DNA of 64,000 nt from Catenuloplanes atrovinosus (lineage in GTDB: Bacteria; Actinomycetota; Actinomycetes; Mycobacteriales; Micromonosporaceae): positions 682,001 to 746,000 of the forward strand of contig NZ_JAVDYB010000001.1 of assembly GCF_031458235.1 (NCBI RefSeq), given 5' to 3'. The translations under genes and the position numbers were made by a program. The stretch's first letter is position 1. Every line of letters starts with the position of its first letter. Positions 3,787-21,763 of the stretch are shown here, in pieces. Under the pieces are notes generated by a model. The model saw only the letters and a list, made by a program, of their open reading frames with translations, made no database searches and was not told where the DNA came from.

Positions 3787-4662
3787 ATGGACCGGCGGCA
3801 GGCATACCTCGCGATCTGGCTCGTGCTGCTGACCGCGGCCCAGTCGGCCGCGCTGCTCGCCGTCTACCGCGTCTTCGTCCAGACCCGCACCGGCCAGGCC
3901 GTCGACACCATCTCGCTCACCGCCAACCAGATCGGCCGCGACGAGTTGGAGGGCCCGGTCACCCTGGTGCTCAACGCCATGTCCGTGGTGTCGCTCGCGC
4001 TGGTCACCGCGCTCGTCTTCTTCATCGCCGCGATCCGCCGCCGGTACCTGCTCGCCGTGGTCGCCATCGTGATCATCGTCGGCGCGAACGTCACCACCCA
4101 GTTGCTCAAGCTCCGCGGCCTGCGTCCCGACTACGGCATCGACCCCGACCGGGTCACCGTCGGCAACACCCTCCCCAGCGGTCACACCACGATCGCCGCC
4201 TCGGTGGCGATCGCCTTCATCCTGGTCCTGCCGCGCGCGCTCAGCGGCCCCGGCACGATCGCGGTGGCCGTCTGGTCCGCGTTCGCCGGCGTGGCCACGC
4301 TTGCCGCCGGCTGGCACCGCCCCAGCGACGCGGTGGCCGCGTTCCTGGTAGCGGGCGTCTGGGCCTCGGCCGCCTGCCTGCTGCTCGTCCCATCACTGCC
4401 CCGATCCGGCCTGGACCCGCCCGCCCGGGGCCTCGGCTGGGCCGCGGGCGTGCTGCTGGGCGCCGGCGTGGCCGCACTGATCATGGCCGTCCTGCTGCTC
4501 CGGCTCACCCACGACGTGATCAACTGGTCGATCGAGGACCTCAGCCGGTCCCGCCTGCTGGTGGCCTACGCCGGCGGCGCCTCCGGCATCGCCGGCACCG
4601 CCTGTCTCGTCCTGGGCCTCGTAGCGGCCACCGTTCCCCGAATGGTCCCCGCCCGCCCGTAG
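3787..4662 (+). CDS. PAP2-family membrane phosphatase
   Basis: A 291-residue integral membrane protein with about six hydrophobic helices. The phosphatase signature is present in relaxed form: KLRGLRP, then LPSGHTT, then GWHRPSDAV, corresponding to the three conserved PAP2 motifs with the catalytic His in SGH and HxxxD. Such enzymes remove phosphate from lipid phosphates or undecaprenyl pyrophosphate at the outer face of the membrane. The first and third motifs deviate from KX6RP and SRX5HX3D, so the substrate is uncertain. The ATG at 3787 is 17 bases after the stop of the P450-like gene, suggesting co-transcription. Confidence 0.8.
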   Translation: MDRRQAYLAIWLVLLTAAQSAALLAVYRVFVQTRTGQAVDTISLTANQIGRDELEGPVTLVLNAMSVVSLALVTALVFFIAAIRRRYLLAVVAIVIIVGANVTTQLLKLRGLRPDYGIDPDRVTVGNTLPSGHTTIAASVAIAFILVLPRALSGPGTIAVAVWSAFAGVATLAAGWHRPSDAVAAFLVAGVWASAACLLLVPSLPRSGLDPPARGLGWAAGVLLGAGVAALIMAVLLLRLTHDVINWSIEDLSRSRLLVAYAGGASGIAGTACLVLGLVAATVPRMVPARP

Positions 4663-5611: not shown

Positions 5612-8143
5612 TCAGCTCCGGCGTGGCTGCGTCCGCCGCGTGGGTGGTGCGGTGGTCGGGTCCTCCGGCCACGGGTGGCGCGGATACCGTCCCCGCAACT
5701 CGGCCCTGACCTGCGGATATCCGTTCGCCCAGAAGGACGGTAGGTCGCGCGTCACCGCCACCGGACGCCCGGCCGGGGACAGCAGGTGCAGCACCACCTC
5801 CACCCGGCCGTCGGCCACCCGCGGCGCCCGTGCCCAGCCGAACGCCTCCTGCACCTTCACGGCCAGCACCGGCGCGGCCGGATCCGCGTAGTCCAGCCGT
5901 ACCCGCGACCCGCTCGGCACCGTCACCCGCTCCGGCGCCACCTCGTCCAGCCGCGCCGCCTCCCGCCACGGCAGCAGTCGCCGCAGCGCCGCGCTCAGGT
6001 CGGCCCGCCGCAGATCACCGAGGCGCCGCGCGCCCGCCAGTTCCGGGCCCAGCCACTCGTCCAGCCGCGCCAGCAGCGCGTCATCGCTCACGTCCGGCCA
6101 CGGCTCGCCCAGCGCGGCTCGGCAGAACGCCAGCCGCTCGCGCAGCGCGGTCGCCTCCCGCCCCCAGGTGAGCGTCCCGGTCAGGCCCCGATCGGCGAGG
6201 GCCTCGCGCAGCGCGGCGGCGATCAGCGCCGGGTCCGGCCGGGCCGGCGCGCGTTCGCGCAGCACCAGCGCGCCCAGCCGCTCCACGTGCCGGGCCCGCA
6301 CCTCGTCGCCGTCCCAGGCCACCTCGTCGCCGGCGCTCAGCAGCGGCGCGCCGGCCTCGCGCGCGGTGGCCTCGTCGATCACGGCGGCCAGCCGTACCCG
6401 TGCGTTGGCCCGCCCCGCGGCCCGATCCGCGGCCGCGATCGCCAGCCACGGGCTGCCCGCCAGCGCCGACCCGTCCGCCAGTTCGGCGGCGGTCCCGCCG
6501 GCCATGAGATAACCCCCGCCGTCGGTACGCCGTGCCCGCGCCAGCCACTCCGGATACGCCAGCCCCGCCACCAGCCCCGCCGCGAGATCATCCGCCGGCC
6601 GCCGGCCTCCCGGGCGCCCGCCGTCCGGACCGTCGCCGGTCACGGCCGCGCGCAGGCGGCGGGACTCGGCGCGCCAGCGGCCCGAGGCGGCCGGATCGGC
6701 GCCGGAGCGCAGCGCCCGCCAGACCGCCGCCAGGTCGTCACGGCGCCCGGTCAGCGTGTCGTCGGCCAGCAGCGCCACCACCTCGGCCGCCCGGTCGGCG
6801 CCGACCGCCGCGGCGCCGTCCAGCAGCGCGCGGGCCAGCCGCGGATGCGCGCCCACCCGGGACATGGCCCGGCCGCGCGGCGTGACCCGGCCGTCCGCGC
6901 CCACCGCGCCGAGCGCGCGCAGCGTCGCCGTGGCGACCTCCATCGCGGCGGCCGGCGGCGGGTCGGGCAGCGCGAGCCCGGTGCCGTCCGGCGCGCCCCA
7001 GCAGGCCAGCTCCAGCGCGAACCCGGTCAGGTCCGCCGCGACGATCTCCGGCGCCGGGAACGCGGGCAGCCGCTCGTGCTCCGCCTCCGCCCAGCAGCGG
7101 TAGACGCGGCCCGGCGCCTCCCGGCCGGCCCGGCCCGCGCGCTGCGTGGCCGACGCGCGCGAGACCCGTACCGTGGCCAATGAGCCGAGACCCCGGGACA
7201 AATCCATCCGGGGTACGCGGCTGAGCCCCGCGTCCACGACCACGCGCACGCCCGGCACGGTCAGGCTGCTCTCCGCCACCGCGCTGGCCAGCACCACGCG
7301 CCGCCGCGGGCCCGGCCGCAGCGCCGCGTCCTGGGCGCCGGAGTCCTGCCGGCCGTGCAGCGTGATCAGGTCGGCGTCGTCGCGCAGCCCGGACAGCCGG
7401 CCCGCGACCGCGCCGATCTCCCCGGCGCCGGGCAGGAAGACCAGCAGGTCCCCGTGGCTGTCCGCCAGCGCGCGCCGCACCACGGCCGCCACGTGGTCGA
7501 GGAAGCGCGGCTCCACCCGCATCCCGTGCGGCGGCGGGATCGGCCGCTCCGGTGGCGCCCACACCACCTCGACCGGGTGCACGGCCGCGGTCGCGGTCAC
7601 CACCGGCGCCGCGGGGGAGGCCAGGCAGCGGGCGATCCGGTCCGCCTCGGCGGTGGCGGAGGTGGCCAGCACCAGCAGGTCGGGGCGGAGGTTGGCGCGG
7701 ACGTCGGCCGCGAACGCGAGCGCCAGATCGGAGTCGAGGTGGCGCTCGTGGCACTCGTCCAGGATCAGCGCGGCCGTGCCGGGCAGTTCCGGATCGCGTT
7801 GCAGCCGGGCGACGAGCACACCGGTGGTGACCACCTCGACGCGGGTGCGCGGCCCGGTCCGGCGATCGCCGCGGACCGTGTAGCCGACGGTCTCGCCGAC
7901 CGGCTCACCGAGCAGCGCGGCCATCCGCCGCGCGGCGGCCCGCGCCGCCACCCGCCGCGGCTCCGCGACGATCACGCGCCCGCCGGCGGCCGCGGCGGAG
8001 AACGCCAGCGCCGGCGGGACCACGGTGGTCTTGCCGGTGCCGGGCGGCGCGACCAGCACGGCCGCGCCGTGGCCGGCGAGCGTGGAGATGAGCGACTCCA
8101 GGACCTCCTCGACCGGAAGCCCGGTGTCCCGCCAGCCCGTCAC
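5612..8143 (-). CDS. hrpB: HrpB-type ATP-dependent RNA helicase
   Basis: A superfamily 2 DExH helicase of 843 residues, the usual HrpB length. Motif I PPGTGKTT is at residues 33-40, motif II is DECH at 129-132, motif III SAT at 162-164, and motif VI QRAGRAGR follows in the second RecA domain. After this come the helicase-associated HA2 region and the HrpB C-terminal domain (PSGSRVRLDYADP, then VLAVKVQEAFGW). It starts at a GTG. The role of HrpB homologues in actinobacteria is not established; RNA remodelling is inferred from family. It is preceded on the same strand by a small conserved gene and an ABC-F gene, possibly as one transcriptional group. Confidence 0.95.
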   Translation of the reverse strand: MTGWRDTGLPVEEVLESLISTLAGHGAAVLVAPPGTGKTTVVPPALAFSAAAAGGRVIVAEPRRVAARAAARRMAALLGEPVGETVGYTVRGDRRTGPRTRVEVVTTGVLVARLQRDPELPGTAALILDECHERHLDSDLALAFAADVRANLRPDLLVLATSATAEADRIARCLASPAAPVVTATAAVHPVEVVWAPPERPIPPPHGMRVEPRFLDHVAAVVRRALADSHGDLLVFLPGAGEIGAVAGRLSGLRDDADLITLHGRQDSGAQDAALRPGPRRRVVLASAVAESSLTVPGVRVVVDAGLSRVPRMDLSRGLGSLATVRVSRASATQRAGRAGREAPGRVYRCWAEAEHERLPAFPAPEIVAADLTGFALELACWGAPDGTGLALPDPPPAAAMEVATATLRALGAVGADGRVTPRGRAMSRVGAHPRLARALLDGAAAVGADRAAEVVALLADDTLTGRRDDLAAVWRALRSGADPAASGRWRAESRRLRAAVTGDGPDGGRPGGRRPADDLAAGLVAGLAYPEWLARARRTDGGGYLMAGGTAAELADGSALAGSPWLAIAAADRAAGRANARVRLAAVIDEATAREAGAPLLSAGDEVAWDGDEVRARHVERLGALVLRERAPARPDPALIAAALREALADRGLTGTLTWGREATALRERLAFCRAALGEPWPDVSDDALLARLDEWLGPELAGARRLGDLRRADLSAALRRLLPWREAARLDEVAPERVTVPSGSRVRLDYADPAAPVLAVKVQEAFGWARAPRVADGRVEVVLHLLSPAGRPVAVTRDLPSFWANGYPQVRAELRGRYPRHPWPEDPTTAPPTRRTQPRRS

Positions 8144-11189: not shown

Positions 11190-11222
11190 CCCCCGGCCCG
11201 GCCGAATCGAGTGGGGGATTCC

Positions 11223-11381
11223 ATGGCTTCCGAGCCCGTACGATCCGTCTGGCCGATCGCCGTCGCGGTGGCCGCCGGCGCACTCGGCTACGTGATTCTG
11301 GCGCTCGCCGCCGTGCCGCCGGCCGTGGGCGTCCCGCTCGCCGTGCTGGCCGCGGGCGGTGCGTTGCTAAGCGCGGGGTGA
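11223..11381 (+). CDS. Short two-helix membrane peptide, remnant of a longer protein
   Basis: A 52-residue peptide beginning MASEPVRSVWPIAVAVAAG, with two adjacent hydrophobic segments and little else. Its layout matches the N-terminal membrane part of the 312-residue protein at 13808 (VRRVAVTLAIGALTYLV and the following helix). Its TGA (11379-11381) overlaps the GTG (11378) of the next frame as GTGA. A GGGGGA box precedes the ATG. It is either the broken front of a shortened paralogue or a separate translationally coupled peptide. Confidence 0.45.
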   Translation: MASEPVRSVWPIAVAVAAGALGYVILALAAVPPAVGVPLAVLAAGGALLSAG

Positions 11382-11707
11382 AGGTCCGCCGCATCTTCCT
11401 GATCGATCAGCCCGGTGGCGGCATCGAGCCCGAGGTCCGGCGCACGTGTGAGCGGCAGAGCCGGATGGGCATCGAGATCCGGTTGCTCGACCGCGCCATG
11501 ATCCCCGACGTGCGGCGCGTGGACGGGCTCGGGTTCATCGTCTTCGACGGCCTGATGACGTACGAGGTCATCCCGTCGTCGATGGAGGTCGAGGCGCGAT
11601 CGGCCATCGCGGAGACCCGGCTGCTGCTGTCCCAGAAGCGGGTGCGGAAGTTCACCGAGATCTTCCACGATCTGTGGGAGGCGGGGCAGGAACTGCCGAG
11701 GGCGTGA
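11378..11707 (+). pseudogene. C-terminal fragment paralogous to the 13808 membrane protein
   Basis: This 109-residue frame begins VKVRRIFLIDQPGGG and aligns without gaps to the C-terminal third of the protein at 13808-14746: VKVRRIFLID, EQSRMGIE versus RQSRMGIE, FIVFDGLVSYE versus FIVFDGLMTYE, VAETRLVM versus IAETRLLL. The central 150 residues of the full-length protein are missing, and the membrane part lies in a different frame just upstream. This looks like a duplicated copy that lost its middle. A split but functional pair joined by the GTGA overlap cannot be excluded. Confidence 0.6.
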
Positions 11708-11710
11708 CGG

Positions 11711-12676
11711 TCAGCGCAGCAGGCCGGTCACGACGTCGCGGACCTCGGCCGCGCAGCCCCAGGAGAGGCTGACGCCGGCGCCGCCGTGGCCGTAGTTGTG
11801 CACCACGTGATGGCCGTCGACCAGCTCGTGCTCCACCCGGACCGGGTCACGCGCCGGCCGGATGCCGATGCGGTGGCCGACGACCGGCAGCGCGGCGATC
11901 CGCGGGTCGACGCGGGCGCACCGGTCGACGATGCCGGCCGCGATGCGGGCGTCCTCGGCGACGTCGGCCCGGCCGGTCTCGGCGCTGCCGCCGAGCAGCA
12001 GCAGCTGGCCCTGCGGCAGCAGGTACGTCATCTCCCGCAGGTCGTCCGTGTGTTCCGCGAAGAACTCCTCGATGCCCGGGTTCTCCACCACGACCAACTG
12101 CCCCCGGATCGGTACGACCAGCGGGTCCGGCACGAACGCGCCCGCGCCCGGGCCGGTGCAGTTGACCACGACCGGCGCCTCCCCGGCGACGCCGGCCAGC
12201 CGCGGTGAGTGCCCGATCGCCATCGTGCCCCCGGCCGCCTTCAGCCGCCGTTGCAGGTATTCCAGGTAGACCGGCATGTCGACGACCGGCGCGGAGTACC
12301 GCCACCCGGCGGTGAACCCCGGCGGCAGCTCGCCGGGCGCGCACGGCCGGTAGCCGGGCAGGCCGGGCGCGTACTCCGCGGGGGTGGTGCGGGTGCGGGA
12401 CGCCTCGGTGCCGTCCACCAGGCGGACGCCGGAGTCCGGCGCGGCGGCGGACAGCTCCGCGAGTGTCCGATAGGTGACGCCGCTCCACAGCGGAACCCGC
12501 TCGTGCGAGGCGTAGAGCGGATCCCAGATCGCCCCGGCCGCGCACGAGGTGGACTCCGACGGCGGGGTCGCGGTGCGGACGTGGACAGCCAGCCCGGCCT
12601 CCGCCACCAGCACCGCCGTGGTGAGGCCGGACACGCCGGCGCCGATGATCAGTACATCCGCGCGAACGCTGGTCAT
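11711..12676 (-). CDS. FAD-dependent D-amino-acid oxidase family protein
   Basis: A 321-residue DAO-family flavoprotein. The N-terminal dinucleotide-binding motif is IIGAGVSGLTTAVLVAEAG, followed by a cofactor contact region STSCAAGAIWDP. The C-terminal signature HNYGHGGAGVSLSWG matches the D-amino-acid oxidase pattern, with the conserved Arg in GIRPARDPVR before it. Members oxidise D-amino acids to imino acids with release of hydrogen peroxide. Length is typical (320-350 residues). It ends four bases from the paralogue fragment on the opposite strand and is divergent from the SCO2521-like gene. Confidence 0.9.
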   Translation of the reverse strand: MTSVRADVLIIGAGVSGLTTAVLVAEAGLAVHVRTATPPSESTSCAAGAIWDPLYASHERVPLWSGVTYRTLAELSAAAPDSGVRLVDGTEASRTRTTPAEYAPGLPGYRPCAPGELPPGFTAGWRYSAPVVDMPVYLEYLQRRLKAAGGTMAIGHSPRLAGVAGEAPVVVNCTGPGAGAFVPDPLVVPIRGQLVVVENPGIEEFFAEHTDDLREMTYLLPQGQLLLLGGSAETGRADVAEDARIAAGIVDRCARVDPRIAALPVVGHRIGIRPARDPVRVEHELVDGHHVVHNYGHGGAGVSLSWGCAAEVRDVVTGLLR

Positions 12677-12881: not shown

Positions 12882-13808
12882 ATGTTGATCCTCGGAGAGA
12901 TCCATACCGGGCTGCTACGGCATTCCGCCCCGGTCACCACGGGTCTGGCGCGGGAATTGCTCGATCTGGTCGCGGGCGAGACGGTGCGCGTCTCGGAGCG
13001 GCCGATATCGTGCGTCTGGTCGCCGGACCTGACCACGGGTGTCGACTGTGGCCTCACCGGCGCGTCCGGCGGGACCGGCCGGGCCGTCGGTACGGTGCGT
13101 CACCGCGCCGTCATCACCGGCGGGCGGGTGGTGCAGGCGTCCGCGCACGCGGTGGTGGACCGGGCCGCCGACGTCCGCCGGCTGCCGTGGTCGCACTACA
13201 TCGCCCGGCCCGGCCACCTGGAGGTGCTGACCAAGGGGCCGCTGGACGCCCTCGCGGACGGCTTCCTGTCCACCGAGCGCGCTCCCGCCGCGCTCGACCT
13301 GGGCGGCATCTGCGCCCGGACGTTCGACCGCGTGCAGGCCGCGCCGCAGCTGGACCGCCGGGTGGCGCTGCGCGCGCCGCGCACCCGGTTCCGCTGGTCC
13401 GCGACGCCCGGCGCGAGCGCGGTGCATTTGGCGATCGAGGACGGTGACCTGCGCCGGCTCCGGCTCACGCTGCCCGAGCTGCCGGCCGCCCGGATCGCGG
13501 ACCTGTGCGCGGACATCGCGCGGCACGACTGGCTGCTCAGCACGCTGATCGAGGTGATCGGCGCGAGCGCGCTCGGCGTCCGGTCGCGCGAGGAGGCGCT
13601 GCGCCGGCTGGCCCCGGCCATCGACACGCTGCTGGACCTGTGGATGCCGGCGGCCCGGCTGGACGACGACATGGCCGCGGTCTGGGCGTCGCTGGAGCGC
13701 CGGCCCGGCTTCACCCGGCAGTGGGACACGCTGGTCGGCCGCATCCGGGACCAGCTGCTGGCCGGCACCGTCCAGGCGATGTCGTCCACCGCCGGGGTGG
13801 GGGTCTGA
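12882..13808 (+). CDS. SCO2521-family protein
   Basis: A 308-residue soluble protein beginning MLILGEIHTGLLRHSAPVTT. I recognise it as the family named after Streptomyces coelicolor SCO2521, a conserved actinobacterial protein without known function that sits beside SCO2522-2525 homologues, as here. The first 200 residues are beta-rich (TRFRWSATPGASAVHLAIEDGDL); the last 100 are helical. No catalytic residues are evident. The ATG has AAGGA upstream. Its TGA overlaps the ATG of the next gene (TGATG at 13806), so the two are translationally coupled. Confidence 0.85.
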   Translation: MLILGEIHTGLLRHSAPVTTGLARELLDLVAGETVRVSERPISCVWSPDLTTGVDCGLTGASGGTGRAVGTVRHRAVITGGRVVQASAHAVVDRAADVRRLPWSHYIARPGHLEVLTKGPLDALADGFLSTERAPAALDLGGICARTFDRVQAAPQLDRRVALRAPRTRFRWSATPGASAVHLAIEDGDLRRLRLTLPELPAARIADLCADIARHDWLLSTLIEVIGASALGVRSREEALRRLAPAIDTLLDLWMPAARLDDDMAAVWASLERRPGFTRQWDTLVGRIRDQLLAGTVQAMSSTAGVGV

Positions 13809-14746
13809 TGCAGAGCACAGCCCGGTCCCGGGTGGTGCGGCGGGTCGCGGTCACGCTGGCCATCGGCGCGCTGACGTACCTGGTCACCGACTACTTCGAG
13901 CAGCCGACGATCCTGGCGATCGCGCTCTCCATCCTGCTCGGCAGCGTCACGCTGATCAGCCAGTTCCTGATCGAGTTCGAGCAGCGGCTGGCCGCGGTCG
14001 AGGAGCTGGAACGCGACCGGTCGCAGCGGATGGAGGAGCTGGTCCGGGAGGCGTTCTCGAAGATCAATGAGGCGACCGAGCTGTTCGGGCTGGTGGAGGC
14101 GTCCGCGTTGCAGACCGACCTGGTCACGCAGCTGGTCCGGCACTCGACGCAGATCACGCCGGCCTCGCCGCCGCTGGTCTACGACTTCGTCCAGTCGGAG
14201 ATCAGCCGGATGTCCGACTTCCTCAAGGAACTGGCCGAGGGCGGCAGCGTCACCTACTACGGCGAGGACCGGGACTGGCTGCTCGGCCTCACCCGGCACG
14301 CGCGGGTCAGCATCGACGCGGTCAGCATGGAGTGGGTCGACCGCGGGCTGTGGGACAGCGAGATCGGCCAGCGCTATCTGCACGCCCAGCGCGGCGCCGT
14401 GGAGCGCGGCGTGAAGGTGCGCCGCATCTTCCTCATCGACCGGCCCGGCGACGGCCTCGCGCCCGGCATCAGCGAGGCCTGCGAGGAGCAGAGCCGGATG
14501 GGCATCGAGGTCCGGCTGCTGGACCCGGCCGCGCTCCCCGGCCCGCTCAGCGTGCAGATGCGCGACTTCATCGTCTTCGACGGCCTGGTCAGCTACGAGA
14601 CCACGCCGGTGATGCTGGACGGGAAGATCCGGCCGGTGGTGGCGGAGACCCGGTTGGTCATGCGCGATTCCCGGGTACGGGAACGGTGCGATCTCTACGG
14701 CGAGGTCTGGGACCTGGCGACGGAGGTTCCTACGCCCGGGAGGTGA
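13808..14746 (+). CDS. Membrane-anchored protein coupled to the SCO2521-like gene
   Basis: A 312-residue protein. Residues 1-55 hold two membrane helices (VAVTLAIGALTYLVTDY and ILAIALSILLGSVTLIS). A coiled-coil-like stretch follows (FEQRLAAVEELERDRSQRMEELV), then a cytoplasmic domain with TRHARVSIDAVSMEWVDRG, AVERGVKVRRIFLID, SRMGIEVRLLD and FIVFDGLVSYE. That alternation resembles the core of phospholipase D-like folds, but the HxK motif is missing, so a binding or sensor role is more likely than catalysis; this is inference. It runs convergently into the SCO2522-like gene with a 17-bp overlap. A shortened paralogue lies at 11223-11707. Confidence 0.75.
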   Translation: MQSTARSRVVRRVAVTLAIGALTYLVTDYFEQPTILAIALSILLGSVTLISQFLIEFEQRLAAVEELERDRSQRMEELVREAFSKINEATELFGLVEASALQTDLVTQLVRHSTQITPASPPLVYDFVQSEISRMSDFLKELAEGGSVTYYGEDRDWLLGLTRHARVSIDAVSMEWVDRGLWDSEIGQRYLHAQRGAVERGVKVRRIFLIDRPGDGLAPGISEACEEQSRMGIEVRLLDPAALPGPLSVQMRDFIVFDGLVSYETTPVMLDGKIRPVVAETRLVMRDSRVRERCDLYGEVWDLATEVPTPGR

Positions 14747-15701
14747 AGACGTAGTCGATCCGGTCGACCACCTCGTCCGGCAGCGTGACGCCCTCCGCCG
14801 CGGCGCGCCGCGCGACCTGCGCGCCCACCTCGGGCTGGATCGCGACCTGGCTCAGGATCACCCGTACCGCCTGCTCGATCTCGATGAACCGGGTGTCGAG
14901 CACCGAGGCGGTACGGAACGCGGCGAACGGCGCGGCCCGCGGCTCCCACTGCACCACGGCCGGCATCTCGTGCCAGGTGCCCGGCAGCTCCGCGGGCGTG
15001 ACCGGCTCCGGCCGCCACACCGGCTCACCGTGGTCGCGCAGCAGGCCCATCCGGAGCAGCTGCCAGACCGCGGCCAGGAACGGGCACGCCCACAGCCGGC
15101 CGGTCTTGTGCTCCTGCCAGATCTCCACGTCGACGTAGATCGAGTGGTTCTTCACCGCGTTCTGCCGGGGCGGCTGCCAGCCGGGGTGCGCGTCCATCGC
15201 CTCGGACACGGCCACGCCGGTGGACGGCGGCTCGCCGTTGGAGAGCCAGCCGCTCTGGTGGGTGGGCGGGCGCGACCCGTTCGTGCCCCGGGGCGGGTCC
15301 GCCACCAGGCGGCCCTCCACGATCCGCGCCACCTCGACGCCGTCCGCGGCGGCGCACGCGGACTCCCGCGCGATGTAGTCGATCCGCAGCCCGCTCTCCT
15401 CCGCCGCGCTCACCAGCGCGGGCAGCACCTCGGCGGGCGAGCCGAACGGCGCGAAGTAGTCGTCGATCAGGAAGCAGGTGCTGATCCGGGTGGCCTGGCC
15501 CGGCCGGCTGTCCGCCTCCATCCGCCGCAGCGCCTCCGCCCACGGCCGGACCCGCCGGAACTGCGCGCGCAGCCGCTCCGGCCCGGCCGCGAAGTCCTCC
15601 ATGTAGAGGTGACCCAGCTCGATGGAGAGGTGGGAGAGCGGGGTGGACCTGACCTTCGGCGTCGCGGTGCTCTCGCTGTACGTCACCTCGGGAACGGTCA
15701 C
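14730..15701 (-). CDS. SCO2522-family protein
   Basis: A 323-residue protein starting at GTG 15701 (VTVPEVTYSESTATPKVRST) with GGGAGG upstream. The central signature ISTCFLIDDYFAPFGSPAEVLP is the hallmark by which I recognise the SCO2522 family. The section after it (SGLRIDYIARESACAAADG) and the block KNHSIYVDVEIWQ are also conserved-looking. No enzymatic motif is assigned. Its GTG overlaps the TGA of the P-loop gene as GTGA, so it is translationally coupled as the last gene of the four-gene minus-strand operon. Confidence 0.85.
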   Translation of the reverse strand: MTVPEVTYSESTATPKVRSTPLSHLSIELGHLYMEDFAAGPERLRAQFRRVRPWAEALRRMEADSRPGQATRISTCFLIDDYFAPFGSPAEVLPALVSAAEESGLRIDYIARESACAAADGVEVARIVEGRLVADPPRGTNGSRPPTHQSGWLSNGEPPSTGVAVSEAMDAHPGWQPPRQNAVKNHSIYVDVEIWQEHKTGRLWACPFLAAVWQLLRMGLLRDHGEPVWRPEPVTPAELPGTWHEMPAVVQWEPRAAPFAAFRTASVLDTRFIEIEQAVRVILSQVAIQPEVGAQVARRAAAEGVTLPDEVVDRIDYVFTSRA

Positions 15702-16615
15702 AGGCCCTCCCACGCGGCGTCGTCCACGATCCGCTTGGCCAGCGTCTCCAGCGCGTCCACGGTCTGCTGGTTGGCCGCGTGCCGCTGCCACACGTCGCCG
15801 TCGGTGAGCAGTTGCTCGCGCCACTGCAGCACCGGGTCGAGCGGGATCTGGCCGAGCATCAGCGTGCGCCCGACGCGCTCCCGCGCGGCCTGGCGTTGCA
15901 GCTCCTGGTTGCACGCGTTCACCCAGGCCAGTTGCTCCGGGCGGAGGCCGGCGTGCTCGGGCGAGCTGGGGTCGACCACCGCGGTGCGCACGAACCGCAC
16001 CGAGTTCGCGAGCCGGTCCGGGTCGTGCCCACGGACCGCGCCGATCTTCAGGATGCCGCGCGCGCCGTAGACCAGGCTGGACGCCGCCACGATGTGCTGG
16101 CTGGTCCACCGGTGGAAGACCAGCCACCGGTGCCGCAGGTGGGCCAGCTCGTCCCGCGCGGTCGCGGCCAGCGCGATGTCGATCGCGTACGACCGGCCGG
16201 CGCTGAGGTCGACCAGGCAGAGATCGAACTCCTCGTCCAGCCGGAGGAACAGGTCGGCGCACCGGTCCACGATGTCGCCGGTCGAGGCGAACTCGCCGCC
16301 GCCCGCGTCACCCGGGTAGAGCATCAGCCGGCCCGCCCCGGCCGGCCGGGTGCGCAGGCTGGGCCGCTGCGACTCGGCCCAGACGTTCAGCCGGCGCGGC
16401 GCCGCGCACTGACCGCGCAGGTACGAGTGCATGCCCTCGCGCTCGACCCCGGCCTGCGCGGCGGAGATCTGGAAGATCGCGCCCGCCGTGGGCGAGCCGA
16501 AGTCGAAGTCGAGGTAGCAGGCGTTGCCGCCCTGCAACGCGTGCCGGTAGACCACGTTGCTGCTGGTCACCGACCGCCCGGTGCCGCCCTTGTCGGACGT
16601 GGCGAAGACGAGCAT
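15698..16615 (-). CDS. SCO2523-family variant P-loop protein
   Basis: A 305-residue MinD/ParA-like ATPase relative. The deviant Walker A is SDKGGTGRSV at residues 7-16, followed by CYLDFDFGSP in the switch I position and FDLCLVDLSAGRSYA in the Walker B position. The family is annotated in actinobacteria as variant P-loop because the loop departs from KGGxGKT: the usual lysine before Thr/Ser is replaced by Arg, while the signature lysine remains. It probably binds nucleotide and partners with its neighbours. It begins one base after the stop of the SCO2524-like gene and overlaps the SCO2522-like gene. Confidence 0.85.
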   Translation of the reverse strand: MLVFATSDKGGTGRSVTSSNVVYRHALQGGNACYLDFDFGSPTAGAIFQISAAQAGVEREGMHSYLRGQCAAPRRLNVWAESQRPSLRTRPAGAGRLMLYPGDAGGGEFASTGDIVDRCADLFLRLDEEFDLCLVDLSAGRSYAIDIALAATARDELAHLRHRWLVFHRWTSQHIVAASSLVYGARGILKIGAVRGHDPDRLANSVRFVRTAVVDPSSPEHAGLRPEQLAWVNACNQELQRQAARERVGRTLMLGQIPLDPVLQWREQLLTDGDVWQRHAANQQTVDALETLAKRIVDDAAWEGL

Positions 16616-16616
16616 G

Positions 16617-18467
16617 TCACACCGGTTCCGCGGTGGCCTCGCGCGCGGCGGCGAGACGGTCGAGCCGGATGAGCACGTCCTCGGCCAGCGCCTTGGCGCT
16701 GCCCGGCCGCTGCCGCAGGATTCGGCGGGCGCGCTGGAGCTGCCGGTTGACCTGCTCGAGTTCGTTGCGCAGCCGCTCGCCGCGCTGGGGCAGGCCGTTG
16801 AGCTGCTCCTGGTCGTACAGGTGCTCGGCCTCGATCAGCAGGTCGGAGGCGATGTCCGCGAGCCGCTCACTGCGCGGCGGCGAGCTGCGGATCACCTGCG
16901 CGGCCGTGATCAGGCAGTCGACCACCCGCTTGGTGTAGTACCAGGACGGGAGCGTCTGCGTGGTGCCGACGTCGAACACGCGGGACGGGTCGTCCCACAG
17001 GTCGGCGGCGCGGTCGTCCGCGATCCGGCGCTCGGTCAGGTGCGTCCACACGCGACCCGCCAGCGACGTGGCGTTCTGCCGGGCCTCGTTGTCGGAGAGC
17101 AGGCCGGCCAGGTGCACCGTGCGCTTGAGCAGCACCGGCGCGAAGTCCGACGCCACCCAGCCGAGCTGCGGCCCGCCCGACTTCTCGCTGCCCACCAGCG
17201 GGAACGCCTCACCCGGGTGGTGCAGCCGGATCGCCGGGTCGTGCTCGAACGGGCGGCGGGTGATGCGGCTGCGGTTGGCCAGCTCGTCCAGCACCACGCC
17301 GACCCGGGCGAGATCCGCGTCGGACGCGCGCCGGGTGATCAGGTCCTGCACCACCATGCCGCTGATCAGCAGGCTGAAGTAGTCGGAGGCGCGCCCGTCC
17401 GTGGTCTGCCACGGCAGGTCCTCCAGCGGCCAGCGGTCCGACCCGAACGTGCCGACCACCGACCAGTACGACTGGGTGAGGTCCCAGCGCAGCTGGAGCG
17501 CCTGCGCCAGGCGCAGCTGGTCCTCGTTGAGCAGGCCGAGCAGGCGGGTGCGCTCGGAGAACAGCGACCGGATCGCGTCCAGCGCGACCACCGTGAAGTA
17601 CAGGTACGGCTTCGGCTCGGCCACGCCGTCGCGCTGTCGCCCGATCGGGTCGTTGACCTGGACCACCGGCGCGTCCTCCACCAGCCCCCAGGACCAGCCG
17701 CACTCGAACAGCCGGTGCGGGTTGTCCAGCCGGCTGCCCTCCTCGGCGCCGGAACCGATCGTGACGTCGTCCCGCAGGCGGGCGTTGATCTCCCGCAGCG
17801 AGCGGCGGAGCTCCTCCACGACCTGCCGCTCCGGCTGCGCACCCTGGTTGGTGGTGCGCAGCAGTTGCCGGCCCTCCTCCTCGGTGGCGTCGAAGACGTT
17901 CACCGCGAAGCTGCGCAGCAGCCCGACCATCGCGGCGGTGAGCCGGGCGCTGGCCATCTGCTCCAGCCGGTCGACCTGCTGCCGCAGCGCCTCGCGGGTG
18001 AGCACCGCGCGGAACGTCTTCGCGAAACCGATGGTGGCGAGCATCAGCGTGACCGAGATCGAGAACGAGTCCACCACGTCGAGGCCGCGCTGCTCGGGCT
18101 TGATCTCGTCGATCGCCTCCGGGTCGGCCGCGCTGAAGTAGCTGTCACCGGAGAAGATCGGCGTGCCGTCGTCCGCCGTGTACTTCTCCAGGTACACCGT
18201 GATCAACTGGACCAGTCGCTTCGGCACCTCCAGGTGGTCGCCGAGCGCGGCCAGCGAGCCGATCACGTCATCCTCGGTCTCGTCCGGTCGGTCGATCCGG
18301 AACGTCGGCACGTCCGCGGCCGGGGACATGATGCAGAGCAGCTGCTCCGCGTCGCTGATCGAGTTGCTGCCGTCGCGGCCGCCCCAGCGCCAGTCGGCGC
18401 CGTTACCCGAGTAGCTGGCGAATGCCCGCCAGATTTCCAGGAGGTGCTGGCGAGGTTGGACGTCCAT
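16617..18467 (-). CDS. SCO2524-family protein
   Basis: A 616-residue mostly helical protein starting MDVQPRQHLLEIWRAFASYSG. It is recognisable as the SCO2524 family by size, context and the N-terminal block with SGDSYFS. The long alpha-helical C-terminus (GERLRNELEQVNRQLQRARRI) could form coiled coils. No enzyme motif, signal peptide or membrane segment is evident. AGGAAGGTGAG upstream gives a plausible ribosome site. The start lies inside the 3' end of the methyltransferase gene (65-bp overlap), and the stop is one base from the next ATG, indicating a tightly coupled operon. Confidence 0.85.
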   Translation of the reverse strand: MDVQPRQHLLEIWRAFASYSGNGADWRWGGRDGSNSISDAEQLLCIMSPAADVPTFRIDRPDETEDDVIGSLAALGDHLEVPKRLVQLITVYLEKYTADDGTPIFSGDSYFSAADPEAIDEIKPEQRGLDVVDSFSISVTLMLATIGFAKTFRAVLTREALRQQVDRLEQMASARLTAAMVGLLRSFAVNVFDATEEEGRQLLRTTNQGAQPERQVVEELRRSLREINARLRDDVTIGSGAEEGSRLDNPHRLFECGWSWGLVEDAPVVQVNDPIGRQRDGVAEPKPYLYFTVVALDAIRSLFSERTRLLGLLNEDQLRLAQALQLRWDLTQSYWSVVGTFGSDRWPLEDLPWQTTDGRASDYFSLLISGMVVQDLITRRASDADLARVGVVLDELANRSRITRRPFEHDPAIRLHHPGEAFPLVGSEKSGGPQLGWVASDFAPVLLKRTVHLAGLLSDNEARQNATSLAGRVWTHLTERRIADDRAADLWDDPSRVFDVGTTQTLPSWYYTKRVVDCLITAAQVIRSSPPRSERLADIASDLLIEAEHLYDQEQLNGLPQRGERLRNELEQVNRQLQRARRILRQRPGSAKALAEDVLIRLDRLAAAREATAEPV

Positions 18468-19242
18468 CCCGGTGGCTCACCTTCCTGTGAGACGCACTGC
18501 CTCTACCTGCGAAACCAGTTACGACGATCATTCCCTTGTAGCCGTCGCGGAGGGTGGTGTCGTCCACGGTGTGGACATCGATATTGTGCGTCAGCCCCGC
18601 AAGGCAACGCTCGATGTCGTTCTCGTCCACGGCCAGGGCGGGAAAGTCCAGCCCACCCACGCGGTAGCCCTGGGACTCCTTCATGAAGGCGGCGACGAAC
18701 GGGGCGAATCGCTTCAGTGATCCGATGAAGTTGCGGGTGGCGCGCTCGAACTCCTTGCCGTTCTGCGTGATCGACTCGGCGACGAAGAACATCGTGCCCA
18801 TGTCGTACTCACCGTCCTGCGGCAGCGTGAACACGTTTCCCGGCACGACCTCGGTCCGGTCCCGGATGGCGGCGGCCGGATCGGCGATGGCGTCGTAGTC
18901 GGGACGGCCGGCCCGGAGCCGTTCGGTGAACGCGGCCCAGCTCGGGCTCGGCGACTGCCGCTGGCGGGTCAGCCACGCCCGGTTGGTCCTGGCCCGCTCG
19001 TACAGCGTCACCCGGTCGGCCCAGGGCAGCATGGAGAGGGCGGGGTAGAGGTTCGTGCCGGTGCCGACGTCGATCGCCCGGCCGTGCCGGCGTGGCTGGG
19101 CCGCGGCGAAGAAGTCACCGAGATAATCCAGGATCTCGCTGTCGTCGTCCCGCAGGCTGCCGTAGTTGTGCTCGAAGTACCAGTCAGAGTCGAATGCGTC
19201 CCACGCCCACTCCGCGTTCGACCGAGTCCGTGTATCGGTCAT
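18403..19242 (-). CDS. SCO2525-family SAM-dependent methyltransferase
   Basis: A 279-residue class I methyltransferase from ATG 19242. The SAM-binding motif I is GRAIDVGTGTNLYPALSML, followed by the acidic ribose-binding residue in VTLYERA; the motif IV region is EYDMGTMFFVAESI. The core ends at GMIVVTGFAGR, after which about 30 low-complexity residues run into the start of the SCO2524-like gene. That tail is atypical and might come from a lost stop codon. It is the first gene of the minus-strand operon 2525-2524-2523-2522. The methyl acceptor is unknown. Confidence 0.85.
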   Translation of the reverse strand: MTDTRTRSNAEWAWDAFDSDWYFEHNYGSLRDDDSEILDYLGDFFAAAQPRRHGRAIDVGTGTNLYPALSMLPWADRVTLYERARTNRAWLTRQRQSPSPSWAAFTERLRAGRPDYDAIADPAAAIRDRTEVVPGNVFTLPQDGEYDMGTMFFVAESITQNGKEFERATRNFIGSLKRFAPFVAAFMKESQGYRVGGLDFPALAVDENDIERCLAGLTHNIDVHTVDDTTLRDGYKGMIVVTGFAGRGSASHRKVSHRDGRPTSPAPPGNLAGIRQLLG

Positions 19243-19632: not shown

Positions 19633-20265
19633 TCAGCCCAGCCCTTCCACCGCCTCGCGCGCCCCCGTCGCCCGGCCGGGCAGCGGCGCGCCCGGCGACG
19701 CCCGCAGGCCGTCCAGCATGATCGACAGTGCCCGCGCGCGCATCTCGTCCGTACCGAACTCGCCCCGGCTCAGCAGCAGTGAGCCGAGCACCGCGATGTC
19801 GCCCGCGCCCACGTCCGCGCGCAGCGCGCCCTCCGCCTGCGCGCCCCGGACGATCTCGTCCAGCAGGTCCAGGATCTCGTCCCGGTGCCGCGCGGCCGCC
19901 GGGTCGTCGTGCGCGGCTCGGCAGGCGGCGGGGGAGAGCAGCGACAGGCGCAGGCTCAGGCGCAGGTCGCGCGAGTGCTCCAGCAGCCGGACCAGCGCGT
20001 CCCAGGCCGACGGCTGCTCCGCCACCGCGGTGCGCGCCTCCGCGGCCAGCGCGCCGAGGTTATCCCGCGCCACCGCGCGCATCAGCGCGTCCCGGTCCGG
20101 GAACCGCCGGTACAGCGTCCCGGTGCCGACGCCGGCCCGGCGCGCGATCTCCTCCATCGGGTGTTCCGTGCCCTCGTCCAGGAAGACCTGCTTGGCCACG
20201 GCGATTATCTGGTCGCGGTTGCGCCGCGCGTCGGCGCGCAGCCGCATCCCCTGCTCGGTGGACAT
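19633..20265 (-). CDS. TetR-family transcriptional regulator
   Basis: A 210-residue TetR regulator starting at ATG 20265 (MSTEQGMRLRADARRNRDQI). The helix-turn-helix is MEEIARRAGVGTGTLYRRFPDRDAL near residues 40-60; the rest is the helical ligand domain. It is divergent from the P450 gene at 20372, with 106 bp between them, so it is the likely regulator of that P450-ferredoxin pair. A longer frame reaches 20334 but extends into the intergenic promoter region. Confidence 0.9.
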   Translation of the reverse strand: MSTEQGMRLRADARRNRDQIIAVAKQVFLDEGTEHPMEEIARRAGVGTGTLYRRFPDRDALMRAVARDNLGALAAEARTAVAEQPSAWDALVRLLEHSRDLRLSLRLSLLSPAACRAAHDDPAAARHRDEILDLLDEIVRGAQAEGALRADVGAGDIAVLGSLLLSRGEFGTDEMRARALSIMLDGLRASPGAPLPGRATGAREAVEGLG

Positions 20266-20371
20266 GGCCAGATTCTGCCGTGGACTTCGCCGGGTGGCCG
20301 GTCTACGGTCGGACTGTAACCGGAAGCGTTTCATCCACTTCTAATCGATCTTTTGCGATGGGATGGCACCG

Positions 20372-21563
20372 ATGACCGCTCCGCACCTCCAGACCACGCG
20401 CACCTGCCCGTTCGCGCCGCCCGCCGAGCACGAGCGGCTGCGCGACCTCGGGAAGCCGACCAAGGTCACCATGCCGAACGGTGAGCAGGCCTGGGCGCTC
20501 GGCCGGCTCGAGGACATCCGCGCGATGCTGTCCGACCCCCGGTTCAGCTCCGACCGCTTCCAGCCCGGCTTCCCGACGCTGGTCAAGGAGCGCCCGCAAC
20601 AGCTGCGCCAGGGCGGGTTCCGGCCGTCGTTGATCATGATGGACCCGCCGGAGCACGGCGAGGTGCGCCGCACGATCATCGGCGAGTTCACCGTCAAGCG
20701 GATGGCCGCGCTGCGCCCGCGCATCCAGCAGATCGTGGACGACCACATCGACGCGATGCTCGCCGGGCCGAACCCGGCCGACCTGGTCAAGGCGCTGTCC
20801 CTGCCGGTCCCGTCGCTGGTCATCTGCGAGATGCTCGGTGTGCCGTACGCGGATCACGACTTCTTCCAGACCTCGTCCGCCACGCTGCTGCGGCTGTCCG
20901 CCCCGCCCGAGGAGCGCGCCGCCGCCTCCGAGGCCATCCGGGCGTACCTGGCCGATCTCGTCGACCGCAAGCGTGAGCAGCCCGCCGACGACCTGCTCAG
21001 CCGCCAGCTCGCCAAGACCGGCGACATCGAGGAACTGGTCGGCCTCGGCTTCCTGCTGCTGCTCGCCGGCCACGAGACCACCGCCAACATGATCTCGCTC
21101 GGCGTGGTGGCGTTGCTGGACCACCCCGACCAGCTCGCCGCGCTGCGCGCCGACCCGTCGCGCACGCCCGCCGCCGTCGAGGAGCTGCTGCGCTACTTCA
21201 CCATCGCCGAGTTCGCCACCTCCCGGGTGGCCCGCGAGGACGTGGAGCTGGGCGGCGTGCTCATCCGCGCCGGCGAGGGCGTCGTGACGCTCGGCAACGC
21301 CGCCAACCGCGACCCGGCCGCGTTCGCGAACCCCGCCGACTTCGACGTCGACCCGCGGCGCCCGCCACCACATCGCGTTCGGCTACGGCCCCCACCAGTG
21401 CCTCGGCCAGAACCTCGCCCGCCTCGAACTCCAGATCGTCTTCGACACCCTCTTCCGGCGCGTCCCCACGCTGCGCCTCGCCACCCCCGCCGACGACCTT
21501 CCCTACAAGGACGACGCCACCATCTACGGCATCTACGAACTCCCCGTCACCTGGACCACCTGA
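20372..21563 (+). pseudogene. Cytochrome P450, frameshifted before the haem loop
   Basis: The first frame encodes a bacterial class I P450: I-helix LLLLAGHETTANM, ExxR in EELLRYF, through AFANPADFDVDP. Near 21358-21366 the frame is lost, and the rest of the protein continues in the next frame: ARHHIAFGYGPHQCLGQNLAR with the haem-ligand cysteine, then a normal C-terminus ending ELPVTWTT and TGA at 21561. One extra base (or two missing) in the C/G-rich run around CCCGCGGCGCCC explains it. It could be a sequencing error or a real inactivating mutation. The intact gene would be about 396 residues. The paired ferredoxin and TetR argue for recent or no inactivation. Confidence 0.8.
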
Positions 21564-21763
21564 TGCCCACGATCGTGGCCGACGCCACCCGCTGCGTCGG
21601 CGCCGGCCAATGCGTCCTCACCGACCCCGACGCCTTCGACCAGGACGACGACCAGGGCCTCGTCCTCATCCTCCACCCCACCCCCACCAGCGCCGACGCG
21701 CTGTCCCGCGCCCGCCAGGCCATCCTCCTCTGCCCCAGTCAGGCCCTCTCCCTCCACGAATAA
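21563..21763 (+). CDS. 3Fe-4S ferredoxin for the P450
   Basis: A 66-residue single-cluster ferredoxin (MPTIVADATRCVGAGQCVLT). Cys in RCVGAGQC and the LLCPSQAL segment supply three cysteine ligands, the pattern of 3Fe-4S ferredoxins that pass electrons to actinobacterial P450s; the fourth cysteine position is Gly/Ala. Its ATG overlaps the TGA of the P450 (TGATG), so it is co-translated. A ferredoxin reductase is not encoded nearby. Confidence 0.9.
   Translation: MPTIVADATRCVGAGQCVLTDPDAFDQDDDQGLVLILHPTPTSADALSRARQAILLCPSQALSLHE

What the first reader, a model, noticed from the sequence alone, without database searches (positions are those of the whole stretch)
12882..19242. SCO2521-2525-like set extended by a membrane protein
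Established: SCO2521-2525 homologues are conserved neighbours in actinobacteria without known function. Seen here: a convergent layout in which SCO2525-2524-2523-2522 are tightly coupled (65-bp overlap, 1-bp gap, GTGA overlap) and face a SCO2521-like gene coupled by TGATG to a two-helix membrane protein with a PLD-like but HxK-less domain. A methyltransferase, a variant ParA-like P-loop protein and a membrane anchor in one set suggest a membrane-tethered machine, perhaps for protein modification or positioning. The membrane protein and SCO2522 share a similar core (FLID followed by a strand with xIxIRxLD/IDYIA), so they may be distant relatives.
Basis: partly seen in the sequence, partly recalled or inferred. 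Interest (0 to 1): 0.8.

Follow-up and report, generated by a model that had tools for sequence, protein, structure and literature searches.

The report
Actinobacterial gene set with interchangeable partners
A conserved bacterial gene set of unknown function includes a membrane protein with a dead phospholipase-D-like domain, and in other species the place of that protein is taken by large sensor-type NTPases, which suggests an alarm or defence circuit with exchangeable output parts.

Summary
SCO2525-2524-2523-2522 (minus strand) face SCO2521 and a 312-aa membrane protein (MEM, 13808-14746), with the stated overlaps. Five proteins match NCBIfam SCO2521-2525, families without a stated function.

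MEM is a real sixth member: beside SCO2521 in 65 of 85 regions, and in 4 of 296 sampled genomes, all among the 5 with SCO2521. Its model (pLDDT 92.8) has two N-terminal helices, the second long, and a PLD fold; the catalytic His and Lys are lost in 48 of 48 aligned rows.

The new result is partner exchange. Of 121 distinct regions, 118 have SCO2521: 79 hold MEM, 29 a STAND protein (DUF4062-NACHT-HEAT in the three scanned), 3 another two-helix membrane protein, 7 none of these, none two above 60 bits. The genome's second SCO2524 overlaps an nSTAND1-WD40 gene.

I read this as a conflict or regulated-death type system: SCO2521-2524 is the core, SCO2521 couples it to an exchangeable output, MEM is the output here. 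Kinship of MEM with SCO2522 is not supported. Function is inferred, not shown.

The parts
12882..13808 (+). SCO2521-family protein, 308 aa; the gene to which the variable partner is attached
   Evidence: NF040565 E 4.9e-105; in 84 of 85 regions (L092 has no SCO2521) a partner gene lies 12 to 1173 bp from it
13808..14746 (+). MEM: membrane protein, 312 aa, two N-terminal helices (the second long), C-terminal degenerate PLD domain (DUF6879-like)
   Evidence: AlphaFold2 pLDDT 92.8; Foldseek top hit 1byr (PLD family Nuc) E 2.3e-9; 46 of 48 aligned rows match Pfam DUF6879 at E 0.1 or better, the window's own copy below the curated cut-off
13811..13976 (+). MEM membrane segment: helix residues 2-29 and first part of helix 34-98
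   Evidence: model secondary structure; hydropathy peaks at residues 9-27 and 35-53
14171..14716 (+). PLD-like domain of MEM (residues about 122-303)
14564..14581 (+). remnant of the HxKxxxxD motif (residues 253-258): Lys replaced by Asp, final Asp kept; position 251 (His) is Met here
   Evidence: D253 48 of 48, D258 48 of 48, no His at 251 in 48 rows (one is a gap)
14730..15701 (-). SCO2522-family protein, 323 aa; fold without a significant match; invariant polar residues (H24, E28, H31, D80, D81, D108, E113)
   Evidence: NF040566 E 4.3e-139; model pLDDT 88.3; Foldseek no hit at E 0.001 or better; 47 of 47 rows at each named residue
15698..16615 (-). SCO2523-family ParA/MinD-like P-loop protein, 305 aa
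   Evidence: NF040564 E 2.8e-148
16571..16591 (-). variant Walker A KGGTGRS of SCO2523 (Arg for the P-loop Lys)
   Evidence: Arg in 86 of 86 rows, 85 distinct
16617..18467 (-). SCO2524-family protein, 616 aa, no relative of known function found; largest core protein
   Evidence: NF040567 E 2.5e-268; best solved-structure match E 0.11
18403..19242 (-). SCO2525-family SAM-dependent methyltransferase, NNMT/PNMT-like
   Evidence: NF040568 E 4e-90; Pfam NNMT_PNMT_TEMT E 1.4e-6; D, G, G, N, Y and P of the motif in 59 of 59 rows
11711..12676 (-). D-amino-acid-oxidase-family FAD oxidoreductase, divergent from SCO2521: frequent accessory
   Evidence: Pfam DAO E 6.5e-33; on the opposite strand within 500 bp of SCO2521 in 40 of 92 distinct regions
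11351..11707 (+). truncated extra copy of the MEM C-terminus on the far side of the oxidase gene
   Evidence: MEM profile 103 bits over positions 203-314; 76% DNA identity over 197 bases

Best explanation
SCO2521-2524 form the fixed core of an actinobacterial alarm or conflict-type system whose output part is exchangeable and is attached on the SCO2521 side of the locus. In this window the output is MEM: two membrane helices and a long stalk carrying a catalytically dead PLD domain that most likely binds a ligand or a protein of the core. On a trigger, the core (SCO2523, which probably binds ATP but hydrolyses it poorly, with SCO2524, SCO2522 and SCO2521) would release or activate MEM, which would then change the membrane (permeability or attachment of the complex). 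In relatives the same core is paired instead with DUF4062-NACHT-HEAT STAND proteins or, rarely, other proteins. SCO2525, the oxidase and a GNAT are optional modifiers. Shown here: gene set, coupling, partner exchange, dead PLD motif, variant P-loop, phylogenetic linkage. Inferred: that the core senses a trigger, that MEM is the output, and that the purpose is conflict or regulated growth arrest.
For: MEM linked to SCO2521: 4 of 296 genomes have MEM, all among the 5 with SCO2521 (hypergeometric P 1.6e-8); the fifth carries the CHAN protein. Partner exchange: above 60 bits MEM, STAND and CHAN never occur together in 118 SCO2521 regions (79, 29, 3 and none 7). STAND identity: DUF4062 + NACHT + HEAT in the three members scanned, the rest by profile. 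STAND beside the core is not background: G337 has one DUF4062 in 6.7 Mb and it is this one; 14 in 8 genomes. Other STAND-class links of SCO2524: nSTAND1-WD40 gene overlapping the second SCO2524 of this genome, DUF4062-NB-ARC-WD40 facing a split SCO2524 in L122 and TIR_2-AAA next to SCO2524 in L116. Dead PLD and variant P-loop invariant. Published context: conflict systems of multicellular bacteria combine NTPases, variable effectors and inactive MinD/ParA-like domains (PMC7159879, passages seen); SCO2525 is cited as needed for normal growth and as having a morphogenetic role (passages in PMC11472566 and PMC6344877).
Against: No significant PADLOC match for any of the six proteins. Phage or island context was not tested. 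About half of the window's family carries SCO2524 relatives (63 of 121), and some copies seem to sit in a conserved chromosomal context (L120, L121, L212, judged by reading), unlike most mobile defence systems. Partner labels change only 3 to 4 times on a quick tree of 85 SCO2523 rows, so exchange is real but slow, and loci are not independent. One STAND region (L087) has a weak MEM-profile hit (57 bits; no Pfam match) away from SCO2521. Seven of 118 regions show none of the three partners. SCO2525 is not seen in 26 of 84 regions (some contigs end too early to tell), so it is not a general safety catch. All four MEM rows of the 296-genome sample were in the profile used. MEM toxicity, ligand binding and contact with SCO2521 are untested. 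The published SCO2525 phenotype is developmental, not immune.
Confidence: 0.5

Rival explanations
1. A membrane-tethered morphogenesis or growth machine: the ParA-like SCO2523 and SCO2524 position an activity at the membrane through MEM, serving hyphal growth and sporulation; STAND and other partners are lineage-specific signal inputs to the same machine.
For: SCO2525 is cited for normal growth and a morphogenetic role, and sco2521-sco2526 is listed in the HupS regulon (passages); 63 of 121 family genomes carry SCO2524 relatives; MEM carries membrane helices.
Against: ParA-type cycling needs the P-loop Lys (general knowledge), which is Arg in 86 of 86 rows; replacement of MEM by large STAND proteins without MEM's membrane part is odd for a structural anchor; only 5 of 296 phylum genomes have the set.
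Confidence: 0.22
2. A small-molecule or protein-modifying enzyme complex: SCO2522, the methyltransferase, the oxidase and the GNAT make or modify a metabolite or peptide, and MEM or STAND parts sense it.
For: A methyltransferase, a DAO-type oxidase (40 of 92), a second DAO type (12 of 92) and a GNAT (17 distinct regions, with the repeat L123 removed) recur; SCO2522 has many invariant polar residues and weak class-I aminoacyl-tRNA-synthetase structural hits (ranks 2, 3, 5; rank 6).
Against: Those structural hits are not significant (E 0.1 to 0.45) and profile comparison with CysRS/MshC gives probability 0.1%; the modifying enzymes are optional.
Confidence: 0.17
3. Partner exchange is only lineage drift: unrelated neighbours happen to sit beside a conserved operon.
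For: Labels cluster on the tree (3 to 4 changes).
Against: 4-bp start/stop overlap of SCO2521 and MEM in 34 of 62 pairs, MEM found only in SCO2521 genomes in the phylum sample, no region with MEM and STAND above 60 bits in 118, STAND adjacency in a genome with one DUF4062.
Confidence: 0.06

Closest known systems
NCBIfam SCO2521-SCO2525 families (NF040564-NF040568)
   Same: All five core proteins match above the curated cut-offs.
   Different: The model names state no function; MEM, the STAND alternative, the oxidase and the GNAT are not part of these five models.
NTP-dependent conflict systems of multicellular bacteria (Kaur et al. 2020, PMC7159879; passages seen only)
   Same: NTPase-centred gene sets with variable effectors and inactive MinD/ParA-like domains.
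   Different: I searched the text for six terms: SCO25, DUF4062, PLD and methyltransferase do not occur. Whether its figures or tables hold this gene set under other names was not checked.
PLD superfamily (Nuc, PLD3, Zucchini, FAM83)
   Same: Same predicted fold of the MEM C-terminal domain.
   Different: His and Lys of HKD lost in 48 of 48 rows, so not a phospholipase or nuclease of the known chemistry.
ParA/MinD ATPases
   Same: SCO2523 P-loop region and weak Pfam ParA match (E 7.6e-4, below cut-off).
   Different: KGGTGRS instead of the canonical KGGxGK[ST] (canonical motif recalled).
2TM effectors of signalling-type anti-phage systems (such as CBASS; recalled, not tested)
   Same: Two membrane helices joined to a non-enzymatic, possibly ligand-binding domain.
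   Different: No significant PADLOC match for the six proteins; no cyclase was recognised among them.

Membership tests
SCO2521-2525 gene set | each protein passes its NCBIfam equivalog cut-off | tested here: met
SCO2521-2525 gene set | genes neighbour each other in other genomes | tested here: met
   SCO2525 seen in 58 of 84 SCO2521 regions of the first set
PLD superfamily, catalytic members | PLD fold | tested here: met
   predicted model and Foldseek
PLD superfamily, catalytic members | HxKxxxxD motif | tested here: not met
   no His at 251 and Asp for Lys at 253 in 48 of 48 rows
Pfam DUF6879 | score above gathering cut-off | tested here: inconclusive
   window copy 21.8 against 23.9 bits; 46 of 48 rows match at E 0.1 or better, best 1.9e-11
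ParA/MinD ATPase | intact deviant Walker A with both lysines | tested here: not met
   second Lys is Arg in 86 of 86 rows
STAND-type conflict system | STAND NTPase in the locus | tested here: not met
   no STAND-profile hit in the window and no DUF4062 in its genome; a STAND partner is present in 29 of 118 regions
known anti-phage system | match to a PADLOC model | tested here: not met
   only one weak hit, E 0.025, for SCO2523
class I aminoacyl-tRNA-synthetase-like fold (SCO2522) | significant structural or profile match | tested here: not met
   Foldseek E 0.1-0.45; hhalign with CysRS/MshC 0.1%
membrane effector (pore or depolarising protein) | toxicity or membrane damage on activation | not testable with these tools
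   needs expression experiments

The most novel reading that the evidence does not exclude
SCO2521-2524 is the signalling core of a so far undescribed actinobacterial immune or regulated-death system: SCO2522 makes or binds a nucleotide- or aminoacyl-type signal, SCO2523 is an ATP-bound switch, and SCO2521 docks one of several interchangeable outputs (2TM-dead-PLD protein, DUF4062-NACHT-HEAT or TIR-NTPase proteins, other membrane proteins), with the growth defect reported for SCO2525 mutants being unleashed output activity.
Probability: 0.3. Interest if true: 0.85.

Novelty: new variant of a known kind. Interest (0 to 1): 0.62.

Why it matters
The SCO2521-2525 families are named after S. coelicolor genes and state no function; one of them is cited as affecting growth and development. 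Showing that the set has a sixth, membrane-bound member, and that in relatives without it NLR-like STAND proteins stand beside SCO2521, turns an unknown operon into a testable signalling system with a defined core, coupling point and output. It also suggests a first reason why a methyltransferase mutant of this operon might grow badly.

Tried and rejected
Kinship of MEM and SCO2522: hhalign probability 0.5%, unsupported. Kinship of SCO2521 and SCO2524: 0.1%. SCO2522 as a class I aminoacyl-tRNA-synthetase-like enzyme: suggested by non-significant Foldseek hits, not supported by hhalign with CysRS/MshC; an ArgRS alignment was made but not compared. Solved-structure searches with the MEM, SCO2522, SCO2524 and SCO2521 profiles gave nothing below E 0.1. 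MEM as an active phospholipase or nuclease: rejected by motif loss. CHAN as a K+-channel-like protein: the filter-like NPLGxGD of L089 and L090 (likeness recalled) is not kept in L099 and Pfam finds nothing, so I call it only a two-helix membrane protein. Literature: SCO-name searches and domain searches found no description of the partner exchange; that is a statement about the held library and these terms only. The Gehring 2004 paper is not held; I know its claim only from citing papers and recall. The comparison was limited: 80 of 183 confirmed SCO2524 stretches were returned, the best ones. Conservation of the nSTAND1-SCO2524 pair was not shown: the family search with that SCO2524 found other copies at 43% identity or less, and I did not look for nSTAND1 beside them. 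A first count of 122 regions held one repeat (L123 is the same contig stretch as L051); one search removed it, and the numbers here are.
Full report
WHAT IS THERE. The six genes are present at the stated coordinates with the stated overlaps. NCBIfam assigns SCO2521, 2522, 2523, 2524 and 2525 above the curated cut-offs. The 312-aa membrane protein (MEM) has no significant NCBIfam model and only a sub-threshold Pfam match to DUF6879, but 46 of 48 aligned rows match DUF6879 at E 0.1 or better, the best at 1.9e-11. PADLOC has no significant match for any of the six.

MEM BELONGS TO THE SET. A search of genome contigs with SCO2524 confirmed 183 stretches, of which the best 80 were returned with up to 10 kb of flank. 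With the window and four further genome regions (L096-L099) this gave 85 regions. Profiles of the six proteins were built from the first loci and applied. MEM lies beside SCO2521 in 65 of 85: downstream on the same strand in 64, upstream on the same strand in one. This holds where SCO2521 and SCO2522 lie on opposite strands (41, as in the window) and on the same strand (23), so SCO2521-MEM behaves as one unit that has been turned round. In 34 of 62 measured pairs the in-frame MEM start nearest to the SCO2521 stop gives a 4-bp overlap; 5 of 62, the window among them, have the 1-bp TGATG type. In a sample of 296 genomes of the phylum, SCO2524 and SCO2521 are each in 5, the same 5; MEM at E 1e-15 or better is in 4, all among those 5 (hypergeometric P 1.6e-8). 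All four MEM rows were part of the profile used; three of them had been found before with a profile that did not hold them, the fourth is the window's own. Within the window's family SCO2524 relatives are common: 63 of 121 genomes at E 1e-10.

WHAT MEM LOOKS LIKE. AlphaFold2 with 48 rows gives pLDDT 92.8: helix 2-29, one long helix 34-98, then further helices and a mixed domain. Hydropathy supports two membrane segments in the window copy (residues 9-27 and 35-53). Over the 48 rows a threshold of 1.2 finds two in 30, one in 16 and three in 2; a stricter 1.5 finds two in 14 and one in 34. Foldseek puts the C-terminal domain in the PLD fold (1byr E 2.3e-9; PLD3, Zucchini, FAM83 also). Position 251 (the His of HxK) is not His in any of 48 rows (one is a gap), 253 (the Lys) is Asp in 48 and the final Asp 258 is kept in 48. 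So the domain is a PLD fold without its chemistry.

PARTNER EXCHANGE. Regions that lack MEM are mostly not empty there. In 16 of the first 85 a protein of about 1390-1630 aa stands divergent from SCO2521; three of these were scanned and show DUF4062, NACHT and HEAT repeats, the rest are assigned by profile. In three of the 16 the oxidase gene lies between. In 3 of 85 (L089, L090, L099) a protein with two C-terminal hydrophobic segments stands convergent to SCO2521. One region (L092) has only SCO2524 and 2523. Ten further regions were scored with the same profiles; one of them, L123, proved to repeat L051. Forty more regions, from 39 of the 63 genomes and chosen by me, held 13 repeats of earlier loci (identical SCO2523) and 27 new ones. 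Without repeats there are 121 regions, 118 with SCO2521: MEM 79 (65 + 4 + 10), STAND 29 (16 + 1 + 12), CHAN 3, none 7 (0 + 3 + 4), two classes above 60 bits 0. At 20 bits one region, L087, holds both: its STAND partner and a 57-bit MEM-profile hit away from SCO2521 without a Pfam match. In L232 the MEM beside SCO2521 is truncated and a longer copy lies beyond a broken oxidase gene; I count it as MEM. L114 holds two operons, of which only one has MEM beside it; L115 has a SCO2525 between SCO2521 and MEM.

THE SEVEN EXCEPTIONS. L116 carries a TIR_2-AAA protein directly before SCO2524. In L120, L121 and L212 the gene directly upstream of SCO2521 encodes a protein with hydrophobic stretches, with a glyoxalase domain by Pfam in L120 (L121 and L212 judged by reading only). 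L198 has another open frame with a hydrophobic stretch in the MEM slot (by reading). For L207 I saw no candidate in the part listed; in L225, where SCO2521 is in two pieces, the neighbours were not looked at.

IS THE STAND LINK CHANCE? Eight genomes held 14 DUF4062 matches in all; G337, whose locus L119 has the STAND partner, holds one in 6.7 Mb, and it is that one. The window's genome has none. Further links of SCO2524 to STAND-class genes: the second SCO2524 of the window's genome (contig position 4377651-4379324) overlaps an nSTAND1-WD40 open frame by 17 bp; a split SCO2524 in L122 faces a DUF4062-NB-ARC-WD40 gene. On a quick tree of 85 SCO2523 rows, in which 25 of 82 inner branches are weak, the partner label needs 3 changes without the unlabelled row, 4 with it. 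That is more than one exchange, but loci are related, so the simple exclusion probability (7.2e-14 for 92 regions) overstates the case.

THE CORE. SCO2523 has KGGTGRS with Arg at the P-loop Lys in 86 of 86 rows (85 distinct; the window's protein is in twice) and keeps D36, D38, G40 in all rows and D136 in 85 of 86: it may bind nucleotide but is unlikely to cycle like ParA. It also matches the NCBIfam KGGVGR-variant domain below the cut-off (31.8 of 90 bits). SCO2525 keeps the SAM-motif residues in 59 of 59 rows (58 distinct) but seems optional: seen in 58 of 84 SCO2521 regions of the first set (a lower bound, as some contigs end early). SCO2522 was modelled at pLDDT 88.3; no match at E 0.001 or better exists in PDB or viral models. 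Class I synthetases recur among the weak hits; the profile test against CysRS/MshC is negative. I treat this as a lead only. SCO2524 and SCO2521 were not modelled, for want of prediction jobs.

ACCESSORIES. A DAO-family oxidase stands on the opposite strand within 500 bp of SCO2521 in 40 of 92 distinct regions of the first two sets; a different DAO-family gene stands within 500 bp of MEM in 12 of 92. A GNAT (30 bits or more, some hits weak) lies within 2.5 kb of the core in 18 of 95 regions, 17 without the repeat L123; none of these shows a DAO hit above 60 bits. Extra copies of MEM with SCO2525 (L032) or with SCO2524 (L091), and a cluster of extra copies in L028, lie near some operons, which ties MEM to these proteins apart from SCO2521.

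LITERATURE. Three papers of the held library name one or more of SCO2521-2525. From passages only: sco2521-sco2526 is named as an operon in a HupS-controlled group and SCO2525 as necessary for normal growth (PMC11472566); SCO2525 is named among HrdB-controlled genes with a morphogenetic role (PMC6344877); mutagenesis of SCO2525 is cited to Gehring et al. 2004 (PMC3017869; the paper itself is not held). Two conflict-system papers were searched by term and seen in passages: neither holds DUF4062 or PLD, and no SCO25 names occur in the first. Which S. coelicolor gene is MEM could not be checked here.

MECHANISM. The most economical reading is a fixed core with an exchangeable output attached at SCO2521, as in NTPase-centred conflict systems; MEM would be the membrane output and its dead PLD domain the part that receives the signal. 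Steps shown are the gene content, linkage, exchange and motif losses; steps inferred are sensing, activation and purpose. The chief rival is a growth or morphogenesis machine with lineage-specific inputs. The experiments under the next steps separate them.

Noticed in passing
window 11211-11707: Short open frame followed by a truncated MEM C-terminus on the far side of the oxidase gene. Region L232, from a genome of the same genus, shows the mirror image: truncated MEM beside SCO2521 (6505-6783) and a longer copy (3837-4487) beyond an oxidase gene in pieces.
   Followed up: partly
window 11711-12676: D-amino-acid-oxidase-family gene divergent from SCO2521; found so in 40 of 92 regions, while 12 of 92 have a different DAO-family gene next to MEM.
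   Followed up: partly
L100 8649-10325 and 10309-13776 (own genome, contig position about 4.38 Mb): Second, diverged SCO2524 overlapping an nSTAND1-WD40 open frame.
   Followed up: partly
L116 5357-7828: TIR_2-AAA protein directly before SCO2524, in a locus with two SCO2524 copies and no MEM.
   Followed up: partly
L120 4795-6381; L121 14069-16276; L212 13580-15148: Protein with hydrophobic stretches and a glyoxalase-type C-terminus (Pfam tested in L120 only) directly upstream of SCO2521.
   Followed up: no
L032 18025-19693; L091 6087-8925; L028 3010-8970: Satellite copies of diverged MEM with SCO2525 or SCO2524 near the main operon.
   Followed up: no
L065, L078, L079, L089, L096, L098, L114, L117 and others: A GNAT acetyltransferase within 2.5 kb of the core in 18 of 95 regions (17 without a repeat), in regions where no DAO hit above 60 bits was seen.
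   Followed up: no
L058: This copy of the set lies on a record titled as a plasmid (Sphaerisporangium sp. TRM90804).
   Followed up: no
window 20363-21763: One open frame with a cytochrome P450 part and a C-terminal 4Fe-4S ferredoxin; a TetR gene lies next to it at 19633-20334.
   Followed up: no
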